Shown here piece by piece: positions 43,281 through 52,848 of a stretch of 64,000 nucleotides of DNA; position 1 is the stretch's first letter, and each line of letters opens with the position of its first letter. Under the pieces are notes generated by a model. It was not told where the DNA came from and did not search any database. It worked only from the letters and a program-made list of their open reading frames with translations. The position numbers and the translations under genes are program-made. Location: the NCBI RefSeq assembly GCF_000697965.2, contig NZ_CP015882.1, positions 186,001-250,000 of the forward strand, given 5' to 3'. Source of the stretch: Ensifer adhaerens (GTDB taxonomy: Bacteria > Pseudomonadota > Alphaproteobacteria > Rhizobiales > Rhizobiaceae).

Positions 43281-43514
43281 CAGGACCTCGCGGCGGCCCG
43301 TTGCACCGCGGCGTTGCAGGGTCAAAAGAGGAGGAGGAGGGAACTGCTTGGGCCTCGTTGAACCGATTCAAGCCAGACTATGGTCTGGGCGGGGGCAAGA
43401 CCTAAGTCGAAGTGCGTGCGACTGAAGTCTGACCCTGGAACGCTAATTGCCCAAGAACGTTTGCAAAGTGTTCCCGCTTTGAGAGCAGGGAATTCAAAAC
43501 AGATGGAGACGTAC

Positions 43515-43820
43515 ATGAAGAAGGTTGTCAGTTCTGCCCTTGCAGGTTTGTTTCTGCTCGGGGCTTCCGGCTTTGGTTTTGCTCAAACGGTCCTAGTCAC
43601 GCCAGAGCAGGAAACGGTCGTTCGCGAATACGTGAAGAAGAAACCCCTCGCTTCCATCAATCTTCCGGGCGTTGAGCTGAATGTGGGCTCCGCACTCCCC
43701 GAGACGGTGGAATTGCACACCATTGATGCGCCGGACATCAAATACCGCTATGTGGTCATCGATAATCGCACCGTGCTGGTAGATCCAGGCACTCGCAAGA
43801 TCGTTCGCGTTATCGAATGA
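43515..43820 (+). CDS. DUF1236 exported protein
   Basis: 101 residues with a signal peptide (KKVVSSALAGLFLLGASGFGFAQ) and the DUF1236 domain: LPGVELNVGSALPETVELHTIDAPDIKYRYVVIDNRTVLVDPGTRKIVRVIE. DUF1236 is a small periplasmic domain common in Rhizobiales, often in stress-related proteins; function unknown. ATG 43515 has GGAG 7 bases upstream, better than the ATG at 43503. Confidence 0.9.
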   Translation: MKKVVSSALAGLFLLGASGFGFAQTVLVTPEQETVVREYVKKKPLASINLPGVELNVGSALPETVELHTIDAPDIKYRYVVIDNRTVLVDPGTRKIVRVIE

Positions 43821-44588: not shown

Positions 44589-45059
44589 ATGAAGTTCCGC
44601 CTCTCCGCCGGTGAGAGTTTCTTCTTGCTTGGGGAACGGAAGACTATCTTTGACGAAGCGTCCCAGCAGATTTTCCAACTGGATGAGTTGAGCGCCTTTC
44701 TTACCTGCCTCCTCGCCGAGGCCGCGCCGGCGCATCAGTTGGAAGGCGCCCTGGTGGCCCGGGGCGTAAGCCGAGCGCGTGCGCACGCGTCGGTGCAAGA
44801 CTATCTGGCCCATTTGTCACGATGGAATCTGCTGGAGATCATGTTTGATGAGAACGAGGGCACTGCGTTAGACACCAGACATTTGATTTCGAAGGTACCG
44901 CCGTATCGCTCGCCTTTTATGATCGAGAGCTTCGCGACCTCGTTGTCCCGATTTTCGCCCACAATGGGGCTGCTGCCGCTACGTCACACACGGCTGCGTA
45001 CGACGTGGCGCGTTTTGGCGAGCGCGTATGCATCAGCCGACATCGTTCCTCGGGTATGA
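44589..45059 (+). CDS. PqqD-like protein (RiPP recognition element type)
   Basis: Residues 1-90 resemble PqqD-like winged-helix proteins: KFRLSAGESFFLLGERKTIFDEASQQIFQLDELSAFLTCLLAE (strands plus first helix), AHQLEGALVARGVSRARAHASVQDYLAHLSRWNLLE (last two helices, ending at the usual hydrophobic strand). PqqD-type proteins bind the leader of a modified peptide and present it to tailoring enzymes. The frame runs on to 156 residues, but the extra ~65 residues overlap the kinase's apparent N-terminus in another frame and are probably not native. Followed by the kinase, nucleotidyltransferase and a leader-like peptide. Confidence 0.72.
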   Translation: MKFRLSAGESFFLLGERKTIFDEASQQIFQLDELSAFLTCLLAEAAPAHQLEGALVARGVSRARAHASVQDYLAHLSRWNLLEIMFDENEGTALDTRHLISKVPPYRSPFMIESFATSLSRFSPTMGLLPLRHTRLRTTWRVLASAYASADIVPRV

Positions 45060-45691
45060 TTCTCGCTGACTTGGAGGTTGCCCCAGCGATCAAGGCGCTT
45101 GTGGCAGACGACATTCTTGCCAACCTTGGCCTGAATGTCGCACTTCACGCGGCATTGCTCGTCAAGAACGGAAAAGGCCTCCTGATATGTGGCGCGGCGG
45201 GGGCCGGCAAGACGACACTCGCCGTGGCATTGCTCGCGGCAGGCTTCACCTACGGCGGAGATGATATCGCGCTGATGGATGAGGATGGACTGCTTGTGGG
45301 AGTGCCCTTCTCGCCCGCATTGAAGCAGGGGTCTTGGGGGCTGCTCGGCCACATGTCAGATGCAATTCTGGCAGCGCCAATCCATAGTCGGCTCGACAAT
45401 AAGCGTGTGCGCTATCCGACAGGGCTGCCCTATGCTGCACGCGTGCGGGTTCAGCCTGAAGCTGTCGTGCTGATCCGCCGTCGTCGCACCGGGCCAGTCT
45501 TTTGCGACGTTGAGCCCATGCGTGCCCTTTCGGAACTACTGGCCGGTGCGCACACGCCAGAGCGTCGCCTCGCCTTGCCGCAGTTTCAGCGGCTCCTCGA
45601 TATGGTTTCACAGGCGCGCACCGTCGAGCTTACCTACTCTTCCCTCGACAGAGCCGTAGAGACATTGAGGCGCCTTCATGACAGGCAATAG
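45005..45691 (+). CDS. HPr-kinase-like protein kinase
   Basis: 228 residues from GTG 45005. The HprK-type P-loop is GAAGAGKTT (63-71), followed by TYGGDDIALMDEDG with the acidic pair of HprK-like kinases and VRYPTGLPYAARVRVQPEAVVLIRRR. HprK homologues in lasso-peptide clusters (ThcoK, PadeK) phosphorylate the peptide. Open, protein-like sequence in the same frame extends upstream to 44852 (TFDFEGTAVSLAFYDRELRDLVVPIFAH...) but holds no ATG, GTG or TTG, so the true N-terminus was probably lost to a frameshift near 44850-44870. Overlaps the NTase gene by 14 bases. Confidence 0.8.
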   Translation: MARFGERVCISRHRSSGMILADLEVAPAIKALVADDILANLGLNVALHAALLVKNGKGLLICGAAGAGKTTLAVALLAAGFTYGGDDIALMDEDGLLVGVPFSPALKQGSWGLLGHMSDAILAAPIHSRLDNKRVRYPTGLPYAARVRVQPEAVVLIRRRRTGPVFCDVEPMRALSELLAGAHTPERRLALPQFQRLLDMVSQARTVELTYSSLDRAVETLRRLHDRQ

Positions 45692-46760
45692 TTGGCGCGA
45701 TCTGGTTACGCTCGCCTCCTGCCTCAACGGGCACATACCGAAAGAGGCGAACTGGGACGGGATCGTAGCCCTTGCGAACAGAAGCCTGACGATCACCTCA
45801 CTTGCAGGCGCGGTGAAGGAAGCCAACCCGCACTTGCCGGAGGATCTCTCCAACTATCTATCGATGATATATCGGCGGAACACTGACCGAAATTGCAGAC
45901 TGAAAGCTCAGCTGGGCGAGGCGGCCGCATCGCTGAACGAGATCGGTATAGAGCCCATCGTGCTGAAGGGGACAGCCATCCTTGCGAGTGCTGTCCCTGA
46001 AGCGCTTGGTGCACGGCTTCTGACCGATTTGGACATTCTTGTCCGCCCCCAGGATATGCGAGAGGCATCAAACGCACTGTGCCGTCAGGGATATGAGGTT
46101 GCGCTATCTTCCGGTGAAGGTTCCTGGCCAGGGAATGCGGAATACCATCTCCCAGTCGTCCTGATCCGTCCAACGGATGTCGGAAGCATTGATCTTCAGT
46201 GTCGACCGAAAGGGCCGGCCTCCTTCGGAGACGCGGAATGGCTTTGTGGCGATAGTTGCGTGGTCGATATTGGCGGAGGCCGTGTACGCGTTCCAACGGC
46301 CTTTGCGCAGATCATTCTTTTCATTCTTCACGATCAGTTTCAAGATGGTGACTATTGGCGCGGGCTACTCGACCTGCGCCATCTGCTGGACATAGCAACG
46401 CTCGCCCGCGCGTCCTCGGTCGACTGGAACGGACTTAGAGCGCTTTTTGCGAGCGGCTATGAGAGGAACGCGGTCGAGACCCAAATCGTAACAGCTGCCG
46501 CGCTTCTCGGCCTAGACCGAACGGCGATTAGGGGAGTGGGATCGACGGCCAGGATCCAGTTTGCCCGGCGGCGACTTCAGCTCGGCTGTGACTACCTGCG
46601 GGCTCCGCTCACGCTCCTGACTCTCATCTCGGAAGTTGCCCACTATCGCTCCTGGGATCGTTTTGGGGGCGAGCCTTATCCTTCTAAGCGCCGGGAGCTT
46701 GTGCGAAAGGCTCGCGAATTGCGGCGGAACTTCCGCGCCAAGCCTCCCGGAAAACTGTAG
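45678..46760 (+). CDS. Nucleotidyltransferase family protein (PF14907 type)
   Basis: A 360-residue protein: IVLKGTAIL (95-102) and ARLLTDLDILVRP with Asp117 and Asp119 give the LKG...DxD pattern of uncharacterised nucleotidyltransferases (NTP_transf_5). VGSIDLQCRPKG and a His-rich helix near LFILHDQF follow. Such proteins are found with HprK-like kinases in lasso-peptide and related RiPP clusters; the reaction is not established in general. Start overlaps the kinase end, so co-translated. Intact, unlike its neighbours. Confidence 0.85.
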   Translation: MTGNSWRDLVTLASCLNGHIPKEANWDGIVALANRSLTITSLAGAVKEANPHLPEDLSNYLSMIYRRNTDRNCRLKAQLGEAAASLNEIGIEPIVLKGTAILASAVPEALGARLLTDLDILVRPQDMREASNALCRQGYEVALSSGEGSWPGNAEYHLPVVLIRPTDVGSIDLQCRPKGPASFGDAEWLCGDSCVVDIGGGRVRVPTAFAQIILFILHDQFQDGDYWRGLLDLRHLLDIATLARASSVDWNGLRALFASGYERNAVETQIVTAAALLGLDRTAIRGVGSTARIQFARRRLQLGCDYLRAPLTLLTLISEVAHYRSWDRFGGEPYPSKRRELVRKARELRRNFRAKPPGKL

Positions 46761-46922
46761 CCGATTGGGAAGCCTTCGAGTTTGCAACCGAGCATTGACC
46801 TCGGGCGCATATGCGGAGGGCACCCCAGCTACATCTAAAGATATATGGATAACTCGTAGCTTTTAATGTAAAAGTAGTTAGTGCTAATATATCTAACATC
46901 CGTTGGACGGGTGGGAGGGCAG

Positions 46923-47218
46923 ATGGCCGAAGAATTCAACCAATCACGAAGCGACCATGATCGGCGCGAGTTTCTGAAGAGCTGCGGTCGATTTGCGGTC
47001 GTAACCCACCAGTCGTCACAATGCTTCTGTCAACCAGCCTGACGTCGCAAGCGATTGCCTCTTCCGGTGGTGGCGGTGGCGGCAGCAAAGGAAACAATGG
47101 TTGGGGTAACGGGCCGAGTTCGACAAATAGAGGAAGTAGCCACGGGCGTGGTGTTTCGCGCGGAGGACCGGGTGCCGGTCAATCGCAGAGCAGCAGCAAA
47201 ATGAACGGACGCCCTTAG
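46923..47218 (+). pseudogene. Leader-like Gly/Ser-rich peptide gene with a one-base frameshift
   Basis: ATG 46923 (GGGAGG 7 bases upstream) reads MAEEFNQ...DRREFLKSCGRFAVVT and then shifts frame at GTAACCCACC (about 47001-47010). Restoring one C (CCCC) gives VVTPPVVTMLLSTSLTSQAIASSGGGGGG, then a tail rich in Gly, Ser, Asn and Arg ending NGRP: about 98 residues. RREFLKxCGRFAVVTPP...LLLSTSLTSxAIA is a twin-arginine-like leader known from small peptides of alpha-proteobacteria. It lies last after PqqD, kinase and NTase genes and is the best candidate substrate of that set. Confidence 0.75.
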
Positions 47219-47867
47219 ACCACATTTGGCTCGTCGCCCAGTGGCTCACCACATGAGAAGCAGCCGAAACTCAATGGAAGCTCCGGGAGCTCACCTTGAA
47301 CGGATCTATGTCCAAGTCCTGTTTGTAGATATCCGCACGGCGGCCTTGCGATTGTCGCGCCGCTGACGAGAATCAAGCTGCTGCCCCCCGACAGTCGCGT
47401 TCACCCTTGGCCTCCGCGCGCGAAACGGTCCGCTTCGCGTTAGGTCTGCACGGAGGAGCGACAGCGGAGCGCCCTAAGCGTCAGCCGGTACGGGAATAGG
47501 TCCTCGACGACCCGACCTCGCCTGCGGCATGGATTCCAGCGCGACCTCGGGCTCTTGCATTTCGCAGACTCAGCGGGCTGTCAAACGAAGTGAGGATCTG
47601 ACCCCGCCTATTGCCTCACCCAGGAATGTTACTGACGCTGAGGGCAATGAGACGGCCCGTATCTCCTCCCGCCGTTAGCGTGAGGAGATACGGGCGCGCG
47701 CTTCATCCAGTACAGAGCCACCAGTCCTTCCCGAACCTAGAGACCATACCGGACAGCATATTGCCAAGTGCAAGGCGGCGTCAGAGCCTGTCACAGCCTT
47801 AAGCGTGGACGTCGCCTTAGGGGGCGGACAGACCGGGCTCCCACGAGCCGGCTACGGCTTGTTGCTG
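47219..47867. other. Non-coding stretch before the IS21-type element
   Basis: About 650 bp with no credible gene. It contains one strong palindrome (47656-47694) and shows no clear similarity to the neighbouring genes. The sequence GTGAGGATCTGACCCC near 47592 looks like the flank of a lost mobile element, but I cannot support that further. Confidence 0.45.
47656..47694. repeat. Long perfect hairpin
   Basis: CCCGTATCTCCTC (47656-47668) pairs perfectly with GAGGAGATACGGG (47682-47694) around a 13-base loop. There is no T run after it, so it is not a typical terminator. It could be a relic of an insertion-sequence end or a processing signal. Confidence 0.6.
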
Positions 47868-49604
47868 TAAATTTACGTTTTGGGTTTCCAAATCGCATGA
47901 TGTATCGACTGGAAGCGGATCTTTGCGGGTTTCGGTAATTCGCGGATAGGGTTTCCATTAAATCCCGGACAGTCTTTCGGCGATTAAAACATCGACTTTC
48001 GCACGCGCCGTTTTGCCATTCTGGACCCCGATTTGAGAGGGGTGCGGGGAATGGCGAGACGGAAGCAGGCGAGACTTACTGACGTGAAGGACATTCGATC
48101 GATATTGCGACTGACGCACGAACAGGGGCTTTCGGTTCGTGCGATATCGGAACGGCTGAAGATCAGCAAAACGACCATTTCGACCTACCTGCTGCGGGCG
48201 CGTGAGGCCGGGCTGACGGGCTGGCCGTTGCCGCCTGGGCTTGACGAGGACGCTGTGTTGCAGCGTCGCCTGTTCCATCGTCGCGGCCGCCCGCCCCAGG
48301 ATATGCACGCGCCCGACTGGAGCCAGATCGCCAGTGAACTGAAGCGAAAGGGCGTGACGCTGACGCTGTTGTGGCAGGAATATCGCGAGCGGCACCCGAA
48401 CGGTTATGGATACACTTGGTTCTGTGAGCGCTTCGCCGCTTTCGAACAGCGCGCCAGCGCCACTTTCCGCAATCGCCACACCGCTGGCGCGGCGATGCAG
48501 ACCGACTATGCTGGTCACACCGTCCCCGTCATTGATCCGGCGACGGGCGAGATCCGGCCGGCGCAGATCTTCGTCGCGGTTCTGCCGGCCTCTTTGTACA
48601 CCTTCGCCTATGCGAGCTTCACTCAACGGCTGCCAGACTGGATCGAGGGTCAGCAACGGGCTTTGAGCTTCTTCGGGGGCGTAACGAAAGCGATCGTCTG
48701 CGACAACCTCAAGGCCGGCGTTGCCAAGCCCTTGTGGTTCGAGCCGACCATCAACGCCACTTTTGCGGCATTCGCCGAACATTACGACACGACGATCCTG
48801 CCGACCCGCCCAAAACGGCCGAAGGACAAAGCCAAGGTCGAAGGCAGCGTTCTGATCGTTGAGCGCTGGATCCTGGCGCGACTGAGGAATGAGCGCTTCT
48901 TCAGCCTCGTTGATCTCAACGTGCGGATCAACCAGCTCCTCGGCGATCTCAATAACCGGCCGATGCGGCGTGTTGGCAAATCCCGACATCAACTCTTCGA
49001 GGCGATCGAACGCGAAGCGCTCGCCCCCTTGCCAGCAACGCCATTCGAATATTCCGAATGGAAATCGGCAAAGGTTCATCCCGACTATCATGTCGAGGTC
49101 AATAAGGCCGTCTACTCCGTGCCGCACCGCCTGATTGGCCGCCAGGTCGATGTCCGGCTCACAAGCCGGATCGTCGAGGTCTTCCATGATCACCAACGCG
49201 TCGCCAGTCACCGCCGGACGTCGCAGCGGGCTGGTCACGTCACCGTCAACGAACACATGCCGAAGACGCATCAGCACTATGCCAACACCACCCCGGCGAG
49301 CCTGATCAAGCAGGCCGCAAAGATTGGCCGCAACGCTGCGATCCTGATCGAACGGCTGATGCGCGACAGGCCCCATCCCCAGCAGGGATACCGCGCCGCT
49401 CAAGGCGTTCTATCACTCGCGCGCCGGTACGGACCTGAGCGTCTTGAAGCCGCGTGCGATCGGGCGCTGATGATCAATGCGACCAGCTATTCCTCCGTCA
49501 GCACCATCCTCAAATCCGGCCTCGATCAAGCTCCACCAGCCGCCGAGCCGGTCAAGCCAGCCCCGCCGCATGGCAACATCCGCGGCAGTTCCTATTACCA
49601 GTGA
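47868..49604 (+). mobile_element. IS21-family element, incomplete (no istB)
   Basis: The left end carries repeated GGGTTTC units (47881, 47929, 47948), as expected of the multiple terminal repeats of IS21-family elements, then the istA gene. The istB helper ATPase gene and the right end are absent: immediately after istA the sequence passes into a TetR-type coding remnant. The left boundary near 47868 is approximate. Confidence 0.6.
48051..49604 (+). CDS. istA: IS21-family transposase IstA
   Basis: A 517-residue transposase: ARRKQARLTDVKDIRSILRLTHEQGLSVRAISERLKISKTTISTYLLRAREAG (two helix-turn-helix segments), an integrase-like core starting AMQTDYAGHTVPVIDPATGE with the DDE residues, CDNLKAGV, LPTRPKRPKDKAKVEGSVLIVERWILARLRN, and the C-terminal beta domain HPDYHVEVNKAVYSVPHRLIGRQVDVR. 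ATG 48051 is chosen over GTG 48033. Full length, but without IstB it should not transpose alone. Confidence 0.92.
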   Translation: MARRKQARLTDVKDIRSILRLTHEQGLSVRAISERLKISKTTISTYLLRAREAGLTGWPLPPGLDEDAVLQRRLFHRRGRPPQDMHAPDWSQIASELKRKGVTLTLLWQEYRERHPNGYGYTWFCERFAAFEQRASATFRNRHTAGAAMQTDYAGHTVPVIDPATGEIRPAQIFVAVLPASLYTFAYASFTQRLPDWIEGQQRALSFFGGVTKAIVCDNLKAGVAKPLWFEPTINATFAAFAEHYDTTILPTRPKRPKDKAKVEGSVLIVERWILARLRNERFFSLVDLNVRINQLLGDLNNRPMRRVGKSRHQLFEAIEREALAPLPATPFEYSEWKSAKVHPDYHVEVNKAVYSVPHRLIGRQVDVRLTSRIVEVFHDHQRVASHRRTSQRAGHVTVNEHMPKTHQHYANTTPASLIKQAAKIGRNAAILIERLMRDRPHPQQGYRAAQGVLSLARRYGPERLEAACDRALMINATSYSSVSTILKSGLDQAPPAAEPVKPAPPHGNIRGSSYYQ

Positions 49605-49619
49605 AGAAAGGAAGACACT

Positions 49620-50188
49620 TGAATGCTCACAACAGATGCTCGATGTCGCGATGGAAATCGTCCGCAATCAGGGTGCGGATGAACTGACGCTCGGGACCTT
49701 GGCCGGAAAAGCAGGGGTCAGTCGCCCAATTGCTTACGAACACTTTTCTACCCGGGCCGGCCTCTTGGTGGCGCTGTTCAAGCGGTTGGAGGACAACTAT
49801 TGTCCACTGGCTCCGCTCTGCTCTCCGTGAAGCGCCAACTGACCTCACCGCCGTAGCTGACGTCATCAGCGATGCGTATTTCAAGTGCCTTGCCCAGTTT
49901 GGTCCAGAAGCTCTCGCAATCTCCGCCGCACTAAAAGGGACAGAGGAGATGGCCGCATAGCAACGGCTCATGCTCAACGTATACGTCGAGCTGATGTGTG
50001 ACGCGCTTCGGCCGTTCTCCGGCCTAGAAGATGAGCACTTGCGCCCCGTGTGCGTCGGTCTTCTAGGCGCAGCGGAGGCCCTTGCCTCCGAGGCACAAGC
50101 CGGGGCGATATCCCAGCAAATCGCCACGTCCGTATTAACGTCACTCATCGTAAAGGCTGTGGCTGATGGCCCCCACAAAGCTGGGTAA
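49620..50188 (+). pseudogene. TetR-family regulator, broken
   Basis: ECSQQMLDVAMEIVRNQGADELTLGTLAGKAGVSRPIAYEHFSTRAGLLVALFKRLEDNYC is a TetR DNA-binding domain. The frame then ends at 49830; the ligand-binding half continues in another frame (LREAPTDLTAVADVISDAYFKCLAQFGPEALAISAALKG), hits a TAG at 49958-49960 and resumes (MLNVYVELMCDALRPFSGLEDEHLRPV...). At least one frameshift and one stop. Its start was replaced by the IS21 element immediately upstream. Confidence 0.8.
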
Positions 50189-50337
50189 CGTTCCTGTCGC
50201 AAAGCCCGGGAAAGGACGATGAACTTTGACAAGGTTCTCAGGAGGGCACGCAGGGTGCGCCCGATCCCTGGCGCGGCCGGGCAGGTGAGACGTAGGCGCT
50301 GCATGAAGGCCGCACGACCAGTCCGCAGCGCCGTCTC

Positions 50338-50661
50338 CTAAGACAGCATTTCGAGACCGTGTTTCCGGACGATCGAGAGCAGCTTCAATGCGGGGCCGCT
50401 CGGCCGCTTGGCGCCGGTTTCCCACTTTTGTACGGTGGACCCGCTGGTATTGAGATAGCGCGCGAAGACTGGCTGGCTGACATGATTGTTCTCGCGTAAT
50501 GCCTTGATCTCAGCCGGCGTCATTTCCTGGGGGATGGACAGGCAAGTCTCATCGAAGGTCCTCATGGTTTCCTTGTCGATGGTACCTGCCGCAGACATGT
50601 CTTCGACGGCGCTATGGATCGCATCAAAGACATCGCTCTTGAACTTGCGCTTGGTCGCCAT
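50338..50661 (-). CDS. HigA/XRE-type antitoxin
   Basis: A 107-residue DNA-binding protein: an N-terminal segment (SDVFDAIHSAVEDMSAAGTIDKETMRTFDE) that should cover the toxin, then the helix-turn-helix MTPAEIKALRENNHVSQPVFARYLNTSGSTVQKWETGAKRPSGPALKLLSIVRKHG. AGAGGAG precedes ATG 50661. The gene lies just downstream of, and overlaps, a wrecked RelE-like toxin gene. Palindromes at 51011-51031 are its probable operator. Confidence 0.88.
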   Translation of the reverse strand: MATKRKFKSDVFDAIHSAVEDMSAAGTIDKETMRTFDETCLSIPQEMTPAEIKALRENNHVSQPVFARYLNTSGSTVQKWETGAKRPSGPALKLLSIVRKHGLEMLS

Positions 50662-51001
50662 TGCAAATCTCCTCTAGGGCGCCGGTCCCGATTTCGGCAT
50701 CAAGCTCCGCCTGCGTCTTGCGCCGCTAGAGTTCGGCGAGCTTCCGAAAAGCCAGGAGCTTGTCGTCATCGATGTTTGCGCGGTCCTTCTTCGCGAACAG
50801 ATAGGCGAACAACCTTCACCGGGTTTCGCCAGAACGAACGAACGGTGCAGGTTATCGTTGAGCGCTTCTTGAACACGCCGCCACCGAGATCGTCAGCCTG
50901 TGCGCGCGGCCTGCTCAATCGCCTTGCGGAGGGCCTTGTCTGAGATCCGCGCTTTCTTCGCTGCCTTGAAAAATCATGCTGTTCTGAAAGTCCGTCTGCA
51001 T
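50640..51001 (-). pseudogene. RelE-type toxin pseudogene
   Basis: From ATG 51001 the following in-order pieces appear in different frames: FKAAKKARISDKALRKAIEQAAR, QADDLGGGVFKKR, LNDNLHRSFVLAKPGEG, FAYLFAKKDRANIDDDKLLAFRKLAEL. Together they match a RelE/HigB-like (COG4737-type) mRNA-interferase toxin of ~110 residues. Four or more frameshifts or stops have inactivated it while the antitoxin stayed intact. Confidence 0.8.
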
Positions 51002-51031: not shown

Positions 51032-51396
51032 TCAAGTTGTCGGGAAAAATCGCGGAGACTTGCCGCCTCCCACCCTTGGTTCAAGATCCTGGCAGCAAGC
51101 GCCGCGTCGTCCTGCGGCAAGGAACGGCCGTAGTGGTTCGCAACCATCTCCCGTGTGTCCTACTCTCAAGCAACGTCGGCCCTTGAAACGCGCGCTTTTC
51201 TCACCTACCTCATTTTTGCCGGATGCCCTCTCGGATCCTGGCACGGGAACGATGGTCCATTTATGCGTTGGACTGGTTCGGTTCATATCTCTTCGCAAGG
51301 AGGATATGGTCCGGCGTCTGCCCGACCCCCTTGCGTAGCTGTTGTGCGATCGACCGTCTCGGTCTTCTGATCGTCAGTTCCGTCCGTCTCCGATCC

Positions 51397-51472
51397 TGCG
51401 GCCTCCGGCATGCACGTACTTGGCGCGTTTTAAGCAACAACAACGGCTGATTATGAAACGAAGGAGGATGCA
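51397..51472 (+). promoter_or_regulatory. Possible Shine-Dalgarno-masking RNA helix (heat-sensing candidate)
   Basis: TGCGGCCTCC (51397-51406) in the 5' leader can pair with GGAGGATGCA (51463-51472), which contains the ribosome site of the first hsp20 gene; nine of ten positions pair (one G-A mismatch, one G-U). Rhizobial small heat-shock genes are often controlled by RNA thermometers of the ROSE type. The 56-base loop is longer than in those, so this is only a candidate. Confidence 0.35.
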
Positions 51473-51473
51473 C

Positions 51474-51908
51474 ATGCTGATATCGGATTTTGGCCGCATG
51501 GGATTCGACCCATTTCTGGAAATGCGGCGAATGCAGCAGGAAATGAATCAGCGTTTGTCCGACATGACTGCCAAAGCCGCCCACGAGTTTCCACCCGTCA
51601 ACCTCTGGATGGGTGAGGGCAGCGTAGCGGTGACTGCTGAATTGCCTGGGATCGCGCCTGAAGAGGTCGATCTGACGGTTCGCGAGAACACGTTGACATT
51701 GAGGGGCGAACGCGGATCCCCGACGGAGGACGAGAGATCCGTCTGGCACCGGCGCGAACGAGTGTACGGAAACTTCTCTCGAACGGTGCAATTGCCTTTC
51801 CGCGTCGATCCGGAACAGGTCGAGGCGCGTTTCGCAAACGGGCTTCTTGAAGTCGAACTACACCGGCCCGAGACGGATCGACCGAAGAAGATCCAGATCA
51901 AAGGATAG
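51474..51908 (+). CDS. Small heat-shock protein Hsp20 (first)
   Basis: A 144-residue alpha-crystallin protein: FDPFLEMRRMQQEMNQRLSDM precedes the ACD PPVNLWMGEGSVAVTAELPGIAPEEVDLTVRENTLTLRGERGS, RRERVYGNFSRTVQLPFRVDPEQVEARFANGLLEVELHRPE, and the short C-terminal KKIQIKG with an I-x-I motif. ATP-independent holdase. ATG 51474 has AAGGAGG 6 bases upstream. Only 9 bases separate it from the second hsp20. Confidence 0.95.
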   Translation: MLISDFGRMGFDPFLEMRRMQQEMNQRLSDMTAKAAHEFPPVNLWMGEGSVAVTAELPGIAPEEVDLTVRENTLTLRGERGSPTEDERSVWHRRERVYGNFSRTVQLPFRVDPEQVEARFANGLLEVELHRPETDRPKKIQIKG

Positions 51909-51917
51909 GAGGCCAAA

Positions 51918-52322
51918 ATGGCTCAGGAACTGAAAACGACTGAACGCCGGGCTCCAAGCAAGCTTGACGGTGGCGAACCGACCCGTTCGCGCCCGGTGTT
52001 TGCCCCGCGCACCGATATCTATGAGACAGAGGACAATGTCGTTGTTCTCGTGGACATGCCGGGCGTCGCTTCAGAGGGTGTCGACATCACACTCGAGAAG
52101 CGGACGCTGGCGATTCGGGGCTACGCGACGGACGAACAGCACGACAACTATCGCCAAATCTATGCCGAATACGGCGCGGGCAATTATGAGCGCGTCTTCA
52201 CCCTGTCCGAAGATATCGATCGGGACAGTATCGAGGCATCGCAGAAGAACGGCGTCCTGCGGTTGGTCCTGCCCAAGGTCGCGCCGGCAAAGGCGAGAAA
52301 GATCAAGCTGAAGATGGCGTAA
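51918..52322 (+). CDS. Small heat-shock protein Hsp20 (second)
   Basis: 134 residues: TRSRPVFAPRTDIYETEDNVVVLVDMPGVASEGVDITLEKRTLAIRGYA, then YERVFTLSEDIDRDSIEASQKNGVLRLVLPKVAPAKARKIKLKMA. The alpha-crystallin domain is complete and the tail has the I-x-L motif used to build oligomers. AGGAGG 7 bases before the ATG. Middle gene of the triple operon. Confidence 0.95.
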   Translation: MAQELKTTERRAPSKLDGGEPTRSRPVFAPRTDIYETEDNVVVLVDMPGVASEGVDITLEKRTLAIRGYATDEQHDNYRQIYAEYGAGNYERVFTLSEDIDRDSIEASQKNGVLRLVLPKVAPAKARKIKLKMA

Positions 52323-52347
52323 TTCGTGCGGAGAAAGGAGGTTGACC

Positions 52348-52848
52348 ATGCAGATTAGAGATCTGATCCCCTGGGGCAGTAACAAGGGAAGCGAAATTGC
52401 GAAGTCAGACCAGGGAAATCCCGTCTTTTCCTTGCAGCGCGACGTGAACCGTATTTTCGAAGATTTCTGGAAGCGGCTCGATCAACCGTTCGGTGCCTTC
52501 GGGCGCTGGGATACCGGCGGGCCGCGAATGGACGTCACCGAAACCGAGAGTGCGATTGAGGTTTCGGTGGAGCTTCCTGGAATCGACCAGAAGGACGTCG
52601 ATGTCTCCCTGACGGACAGCGCGCTCACGATCAAAGGAGAAAAGAAAAGTGAGCAGGAAGAGAGCAAGAAGGGGTATCACTTGTTGGAACGCTCCTACGG
52701 GTCGTTCTACCGCTCGATCCCGTTACCATCGGGCGTCGACGCGGACAAAGCCGCCGCCCAGTTCAAGAACGGCGTCCTGACCGTGACGCTTCCAAAAACG
52801 GAGGAAGCGTTGTCGCGTGTTAGGAAGATCGAGGTGAAGGCGAGTTGA
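52348..52848 (+). CDS. Small heat-shock protein Hsp20 (third)
   Basis: 166 residues, the longest of the three: DLIPWG and NPVFSLQRDVNRIFEDFWKRLDQPFG form an amphipathic N-terminal arm, followed by the ACD PRMDVTETESAIEVSVELPGIDQKDVDVSLTDSALTIKGEKK, RSYGSFYRSIPLPSGVDADKAAAQFKNGVLTVTLPK and KIEVKAS. ATG 52348 follows AAGGAGG by 6 bases; TTG 52342 is discounted. This Hsp20 class is common in rhizobia as part of multi-copy sets. Confidence 0.95.
   Translation: MQIRDLIPWGSNKGSEIAKSDQGNPVFSLQRDVNRIFEDFWKRLDQPFGAFGRWDTGGPRMDVTETESAIEVSVELPGIDQKDVDVSLTDSALTIKGEKKSEQEESKKGYHLLERSYGSFYRSIPLPSGVDADKAAAQFKNGVLTVTLPKTEEALSRVRKIEVKAS

What the first reader, a model, noticed from the sequence alone, without database searches (positions are those of the whole stretch)
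44589..47218. PqqD-like, HPr-kinase-like and nucleotidyltransferase genes with a leader-like peptide: a possible RiPP-type modification system
Seen: on one strand and partly overlapping lie a PqqD-like protein (RRE-like), a kinase with HprK P-loop GAAGAGKTT and GDD, an NTase with LKG...DxD, and a peptide with RREFLKxCGRFAVVT and a Gly/Ser/Asn-rich tail. Known: HprK-like kinases, PF14907-type NTases and PqqD-like proteins occur together as tailoring genes in some lasso-peptide clusters. Inferred: a minimal system that phosphorylates and/or nucleotidylates an exported peptide. No cyclase, leader peptidase or ABC exporter is here, so it differs from a lasso cluster.
Basis: partly seen in the sequence, partly recalled or inferred. 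Interest (0 to 1): 0.8.

Follow-up and report, generated by a model that had tools for sequence, protein, structure and literature searches.

The report
Decayed cassette for phosphorylated exported peptides
The window holds a broken copy of a three-gene bacterial cassette that, in its intact relatives, probably tags small exported peptides with phosphate through a recognition-domain/kinase fusion; related peptides are common in databases and their function is unknown.

Summary
Observation partly confirmed; gene count corrected. The window is Ensifer adhaerens Casida A plasmid DNA (100% to NZ_CP121310.1). The 'PqqD-like' and 'HprK-like' ORFs are two pieces of one frameshifted gene: close relatives encode a single ~368-aa RRE-HprK fusion. 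The peptide gene is frameshifted too; only the nucleotidyltransferase is intact. Strain M8 has all three intact.

Best reading: the kinase binds the leader and phosphorylates that serine; the nucleotidyltransferase decorates it; Tat exports the peptide. It works like the linear polyphosphorylated peptides (LPP) of Bacillota (PMC13381572) but is not an LPP by the features tested: fused RRE, no YxxP. Binding, activity and export are inferred.

The parts
44589..45059 (+).
   Evidence: ORF; aligns to residues 1-100 of the intact 368-aa homolog; one-base frameshift relative to strain M8 near 44.87 kb
44852..45691 (+). C-terminal piece of the same kinase gene: HprK-type domain with catalytic His, P-loop Lys, Asp-Asp; the ORF as listed starts at 45005
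   Evidence: open frame of 279 aa aligned to residues 89-368 of the homolog; TIGR04352 67.6 bits, cut-off 200
45678..46760 (+). nucleotidyltransferase, intact, 360 aa, overlapping the kinase gene end by 14 bases
   Evidence: PF14907 E=1.2e-27; G98, D117, D119 invariant in 43 sequences; model pLDDT 89.2 with pol-beta-type nucleotidyltransferase fold
46923..47218 (+). precursor peptide gene, broken by a one-base frameshift near 47.00 kb; 98 aa and intact in strain M8
   Evidence: ORF list and tail frame; intact copy L104:8340-8636
46962..46967 (+). twin-arginine codons of the leader (RREFLK)
   Evidence: sequence read directly; RRxFL in 120 of 120 listed homologs
47051..47065 (+). A-I-A signal-peptidase-type site, one residue, then the conserved serine (47063-47065), predicted phosphate acceptor; in the frame downstream of the frameshift
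   Evidence: sequence read directly; serine in 119 of 120 listed homologs and in 41 of 41 readable peptides from genome regions

Best explanation
A decayed copy of a three-gene alphaproteobacterial module that makes short, linear, exported, phosphate-modified peptides. In intact relatives: (1) a small precursor is made with a Tat-type leader (RRxFL, hydrophobic stretch with a conserved TPP, A-x-A) and a variable, often Gly-rich tail; (2) the N-terminal RRE domain of the fusion kinase binds the leader and its HprK-type domain phosphorylates the conserved serine two residues after the A-x-A site; (3) the NTP_transf_5 enzyme transfers a nucleotidyl, sugar or sugar-phosphate group onto that phosphoserine; (4) the modified peptide leaves by the Tat machinery and signal peptidase removes the leader, giving a mature N-terminus x-(modified Ser)-Gly. 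Shown here: gene coupling, RRE and HprK folds (predicted model), conserved catalytic residues, Tat-type leader, conserved serine, frameshifts in Casida A. Inferred: leader binding, the phosphorylated residue, what the NTase adds, Tat export, cleavage, biological role (perhaps cell surface; some cassettes lie beside polysaccharide genes).
Against: No activity, binding or export was measured. Of 21 kinase genomes, G524, G604, G831 and G843 have no peptide match at E<=1e-3 anywhere (G524 and G604 lie on cut contigs; G831 has another Tat-like peptide beside the kinase), and G290 and G868 have only weak ones elsewhere. G325 and G333 have a strong peptide without the kinase. Weak peptide hits left out of the serine count do not all have it at that place (L097, L099, L100; in L101 it is one residue earlier). 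The leader lacks the [Y/W]xxP motif bound by lasso and LPP RREs (0 of 42). The serine could serve leader cleavage rather than modification. In this window two of the three genes are broken.
Confidence: 0.62

Rival explanations
1. The kinase and NTase modify something else (a glycan carrier or a larger surface protein), and the peptide is the anchor or acceptor on which a polysaccharide or other group is built rather than a stand-alone RiPP.
Confidence: 0.17
2. The RRE domain is vestigial and the kinase is a regulatory Ser kinase of the HprK type; the Tat peptide is an unrelated neighbour kept by synteny.
For: HprK is a regulatory enzyme in other bacteria (recalled); the closest named model is 'HprK-related kinase A', with no substrate in its name.
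Confidence: 0.1
3. The conserved leader is only a Tat signal and the conserved serine only a feature of signal-peptidase cleavage; no modification takes place on the peptide's N-terminus.
For: All peptide features are compatible with Tat export alone.
Against: The leader is more conserved than the enzymes; serine at +2 is seen in 2 of 14 other Tat-like ORFs, one of the two (L046) itself beside an HPr-rel-A kinase; that control is small and impure.
Confidence: 0.13
4. The two frameshifts in the window are sequencing errors and the cassette works in Casida A.
For: Both are single-base.
Against: Two assemblies with different contig lengths and coordinates agree 100% over 13,100 bases, though their independence is not proven; strain Corn53 has lost most of the cassette, so decay in the species is under way.
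Confidence: 0.08
5. It is a lasso-peptide cluster with missing genes.
For: RRE, HprK-type kinase and NTase also occur in paeninodin-type lasso clusters.
Against: No cyclase or B2 peptidase among the 19 features annotated around the cassette in S. meliloti Ak57; no YxxP in the leader; Tat-type leader.
Confidence: 0.02

Closest known systems
Linear polyphosphorylated peptides, LPP (Bacillota; PMC13381572; abstract, outline, sections 6, 7, 12 and passages seen)
   Same: HprK-type kinase, RRE, NTP transferase, linear precursor with conserved N-terminus and variable C-terminus, serine just after a signal-peptidase-type cleavage site; polysaccharide genes beside some loci
   Different: here the RRE is fused to the kinase, the leader is a Tat-type signal without YxxP, no SpI-type peptidase or MsbA-type exporter among the annotated neighbours in S. 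meliloti Ak57, hosts are Alphaproteobacteria; that paper calls LPPs restricted to the Bacillota
Paeninodin/pseudomycoidin-type lasso peptides (PMC9266682, passages seen)
   Same: HprK-type kinase with His-Lys-Asp-Asp, NTase (knock-outs point to PsmN adding hexoses to the phosphoserine), RRE
   Different: no cyclase or B2 peptidase annotated nearby; acceptor serine predicted at the mature N-terminus, not the C-terminus
NCBIfam HPr-rel-A system (TIGR04352 kinase, TIGR04353 PqqD family peptide chaperone; only the model names seen)
   Same: kinase family, NTase next door; three of six over-cut-off loci also have a short Tat-like ORF beside them
   Different: the seven proteins of our type that were tested score 56-91 bits, cut-off 200; peptides of another sequence type
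Discrete lasso RREs TbiB1 and TfuB1 (PDB 5v1u, 6jx3)
   Different: fused to a kinase; a different leader type

Membership tests
RRE (PqqD-type) domain | RRE fold / profile match | tested here: met
RRE (PqqD-type) domain | binds the precursor leader | not testable with these tools
   needs binding assay
HprK-type peptide kinase | HprK fold with His-Lys-Asp-Asp | tested here: met
HprK-type peptide kinase | phosphorylates serine of a precursor peptide | not testable with these tools
   needs assay
NCBIfam TIGR04352 HprK_rel_A | score over the curated cut-off of 200 bits | tested here: not met
   67.6 (window), 76.2 (P0004), 70.8 (P0092), 56.0 (P0048), 83.0, 90.7, 76.7 bits (L119, L096, L118)
LPP RiPP family | HprK-type kinase plus NTP transferase, no cyclase | tested here: met
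   no cyclase annotated around the S. meliloti Ak57 cassette
LPP RiPP family | discrete RRE | tested here: not met
   RRE fused to the kinase
LPP RiPP family | YxxP motif in the leader | tested here: not met
   0 of 42 distinct peptides
LPP RiPP family | SpI-type peptidase and MsbA-type transporter in the cluster | tested here: inconclusive
   none among 19 features around the S. meliloti Ak57 cassette; an ABC transporter lies about 3 kb from the kinase in L033 (where ten proteins of four loci were scanned); no profile scan for SpI over all loci was run
Lasso peptide cluster | macrolactam cyclase and B2 leader peptidase | tested here: not met
   none annotated around the S. meliloti Ak57 cassette; none recognised among window ORFs (by eye)
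PF14907 NTP_transf_5 | score over gathering cut-off | tested here: met
   97.6 bits, cut-off 31.2
Tat substrate | RRxFL motif, hydrophobic stretch, A-x-A (consensus recalled) | tested here: met
   RRxFL in 120 of 120 listed homologs; A at +14 in 41 and A/V at +16 in 42 of 42
Tat substrate | exported by TatABC | not testable with these tools
   needs tatC mutant or reporter

The most novel reading that the evidence does not exclude
A RiPP class in which a Tat signal peptide doubles as the RRE-bound leader: a one-polypeptide RRE-kinase phosphorylates the serine at the future mature N-terminus in the cytoplasm, a PF14907 enzyme decorates it, and Tat exports the modified peptide. It may be spread over some two thousand database proteins of Alphaproteobacteria, S. 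meliloti included, and the 'HPr-rel-A system' of NCBIfam would be a sister of the same kind with other Tat-like peptides as substrates.
Probability: 0.48. Interest if true: 0.78.

Novelty: new variant of a known kind. Interest (0 to 1): 0.6.

Why it matters
It gives a concrete, testable substrate and modification site to a kinase/nucleotidyltransferase pair that annotation names only 'serine kinase' and 'nucleotidyltransferase family protein' in S. meliloti, links it to the LPP RiPPs reported for Bacillota in 2026, and would add Tat export to the ways modified peptides leave the cell. The peptide family looks large (2,164 database proteins at E<=1e-3, of which the best 120 were listed and inspected; the weakest may be other Tat signals). 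None of the pieces and relatives tested matched a Pfam or NCBIfam model over its cut-off, and the listed names are nearly all 'hypothetical protein'.

Tried and rejected

Choices behind counts. Kinase-positive means E<=1e-30 in the order sample (14 of 397) and the nine best genomes of the class sample (the ninth, G581, is split over two contigs, 5.9e-30); the other 34 of 43 class genomes with E<=1e-10 match weaker, other HprK-type kinases and were not counted; 10 of those 34 were fetched. 'Strong peptide' means E<=1e-8; weaker hits (class: G290, G505, G581; order: G837, G853, G868, G884, G908) were left out of the Fisher counts. The two samples share at least G000 and G572, hence 21 distinct kinase genomes. 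One search's 42 peptides carry the leader pattern used to find them; left out were the window's two pieces, seven hits with E>1e-8 (not all with the serine in place) and one without the leader pattern; one of the 42 is masked at the serine. In one search leader identities were divided by 36 though the leader has 35 residues, so they are slightly too low; tail identity there was 0.37, helped by glycine. One search used 29 loci (omitting the window, L103, same-genus near-duplicates and peptide-only loci; L089, L090, L094, L096 and L101 were already known to hold a peptide); at least three of its 24 near hits (L116 5286, L117 5475, L127 9353) do not look like real leaders. Alignments used part of what was listed: A3 63 of 120 listed proteins (132 found), A4 the window plus 42 of 69.

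Recalled, from no call: the Tat and signal-peptidase consensus, Tat's preference for cytoplasm-finished substrates, the role of HprK elsewhere, the activity of FKRP, mass values in the next steps.

Full report
What the window is. The 8 kb around the finding are 100% identical to Ensifer adhaerens strain Casida A-T305 plasmid unnamedB, NZ_CP121310.1, and 13,100 bases match without a gap. The window's own assembly is a different one: its contig C3 is 1,459,374 bases against 1,459,375, with shifted coordinates.

Checking the observation. The closest kinase homologs in a 5.8-billion protein search are single proteins of 366-368 residues in Sinorhizobium/Ensifer (P0001-P0024 apart from the 286-aa P0023); those printed begin with the window's 'PqqD-like' sequence and end with its 'HprK-like' sequence. 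Searching the window's genome with such a homolog gives two pieces, residues 1-100 and 89-368, in different frames. Against strain M8 plasmid pB (NZ_CP098809.1, 96.5% identical), the window lacks one base in the kinase near 44.87 kb and one in the peptide gene near 47.00 kb, plus one in-frame triplet in the kinase. M8 has an intact 368-aa kinase, 360-aa NTase and 98-aa peptide. Strain Corn53 keeps the window's sequence up to 44966, inside the kinase, and resumes at 50932 with about 2.5 kb of other sequence in between. So the species is losing this cassette, and in Casida A two of three genes are broken. The genome searches found no second kinase or peptide.

The peptide. Intact relatives read: a variable start, RRxFL, two or three residues, mostly [CA]G[RK]FA, two residues, TPP, a hydrophobic stretch, A-x-[AV], one residue, Ser, usually Gly, then a variable tail. 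2,164 database proteins match at E<=1e-3 (7,983 candidates scored, best 120 listed). Counting from the PP, position +18 is serine in 119 of the 120 listed and threonine in one. Because those 120 are the best hits, I repeated the count on 42 distinct peptides taken from the genome regions, with leaders as different as '...SLTSNAIAKSG' and '...AERNYAAAGSN': serine in 41 of 41 readable, A at +14 in 41 of 42, A or V at +16 in 42 of 42, while serine makes up 10.6% of the tails. Seven weaker hits (E>1e-8) were left out; not all of them have the serine there. Tails fall into several types (for example NNGxGNGxxDGxPG, GWGDKNHxHxGPPG, Gly/Lys-rich, His-rich), sometimes several in one genome (G780 six matches, G758 four).

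Coupling. In 397 genomes of the order, the fused kinase (E<=1e-30) occurs in 14 and a strong peptide match in 10, all 10 among the 14 (Fisher 4e-17; 1e-15 without the window's genome). In 385 genomes of the class, 6 of 8 strong-peptide genomes are among 9 kinase genomes (5e-10; 2e-8 without the window's genome). Of the 21 distinct kinase genomes, the fetched region contains the NTase in 17 and the peptide (E<=1e-3; G581 only at 1e-6) in 13; in G572, G856 and, weakly, G290 and G868 the peptide lies elsewhere; G524, G604, G831 and G843 have none. Peptide and kinase are upstream, downstream, convergent or divergent in different genera, so this is not mere inherited gene order. G325 and G333 have a strong peptide and no such kinase. 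Among 14 loci of close relatives found with the NTase, 13 have a peptide within about 6 kb. Without using homology, short Tat-like ORFs number 24 within 2.5 kb of the kinase (166 kb) and 3 in 181 kb elsewhere of the same 29 loci, at least three of the 24 being doubtful. The 35-residue leader is more conserved than the kinase and than the NTase in 78 of 78 pairs from 13 loci (mean identity 0.61, 0.30, 0.34), which I take to be unusual for a plain signal peptide and to fit a leader that must be recognised.

How it most likely works. The RRE of the fusion kinase holds the leader, the HprK-type domain phosphorylates the serine two residues after the cleavage site, the NTase decorates it, Tat exports the product and signal peptidase cuts after A-x-[AV]. 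Tat suits a substrate that is finished in the cytoplasm (recalled knowledge of Tat). The nearest precedent is strong: in the LPP family an HprK-type kinase puts several phosphates on Ser3 of the core, directly after the cut of a signal-peptidase-like enzyme; S3A, S3T and S3Y abolish it (PMC13381572 section 7). Binding, phosphorylation, decoration and export are inferred here.

Known or new. LPPs and paeninodin-type lasso peptides share the enzymes, but this module has the RRE fused to the kinase, a Tat-type leader, no YxxP motif (0 of 42), and no cyclase, dedicated peptidase or exporter among the annotated neighbours in S. meliloti Ak57 (other loci were not scanned systematically, and L033 has an ABC transporter about 3 kb away). 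The LPP paper calls LPPs and paeninodins restricted to the Bacillota (section 12). I found no description of the alphaproteobacterial module in the papers searched. I therefore call it a new variant of a known kind.

A wider lead. Six of 205 class-sample genomes carry kinases over the TIGR04352 cut-off, the 'HPr-rel-A system'. Three of the six (G212, G304, G378) have a short Tat-like ORF of another sequence type beside the kinase, again with Ser or Thr within the first three residues after A-x-A; G218 (short contig) and G250 show none and the one hit in G223 does not convince. So Tat-exported peptides may be substrates of that named system too.

Noticed in passing
window 47930-49631: IS21-type element with an istA ORF (48033-49604) but apparently no istB; the M8 match stops at 47923, so it is absent at that place there, and similar elements annotated with istA and istB occur in Rhizobium/Agrobacterium plasmids.
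   Followed up: partly
window 44966-50932 versus L106 (strain Corn53): Corn53 plasmid AB is over 99% identical on both sides but lacks the stretch from inside the kinase to 50932, with about 2.5 kb of other sequence instead: another loss of the cassette in the same species.
   Followed up: partly
L005:22-4667 (Sinorhizobium shofinae): Very long ORFs of Ser/Thr-containing nine-residue repeats (LSTDQIAAL type) directly upstream of the kinase; a motif scan did not flag them in L002-L018 otherwise. Possibly a second substrate or unrelated.
   Followed up: no
L128:7765-8334 (-), L129:5073-5354 (+), L168 near 2436 (+): Short Tat-like peptides beside true HPr-rel-A kinases (G378, G304, G212), of another sequence type, with Ser/Thr right after A-x-A.
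   Followed up: partly
L170 near 5920 (G370), L171 near 7625 (G226): Tat-like leaders followed by Ser/Gly/Arg repeats (RGSWGS, SRGSSAS) next to distant HprK-type kinases.
   Followed up: no
P0121 (Ensifer sp. Root278): A peptide with the whole leader repeated twice in tandem before one tail.
   Followed up: no
window 43380-43820; L032:12508-12897: A DUF1236 protein (E=8.7e-15) lies just upstream of the cassette; by eye a similar small protein lies in L032, some 5 kb from another cassette.
   Followed up: no
L107 (CP090106.1, S. meliloti Ak57): The record is named plasmid pSymB but is 3.7 Mb and carries hisD and infA around the cassette, so it looks like a mislabelled chromosome.
   Followed up: no
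window 51342-52848: Three consecutive ORFs that look by eye like small heat-shock (Hsp20-type) proteins; not scanned.
   Followed up: no
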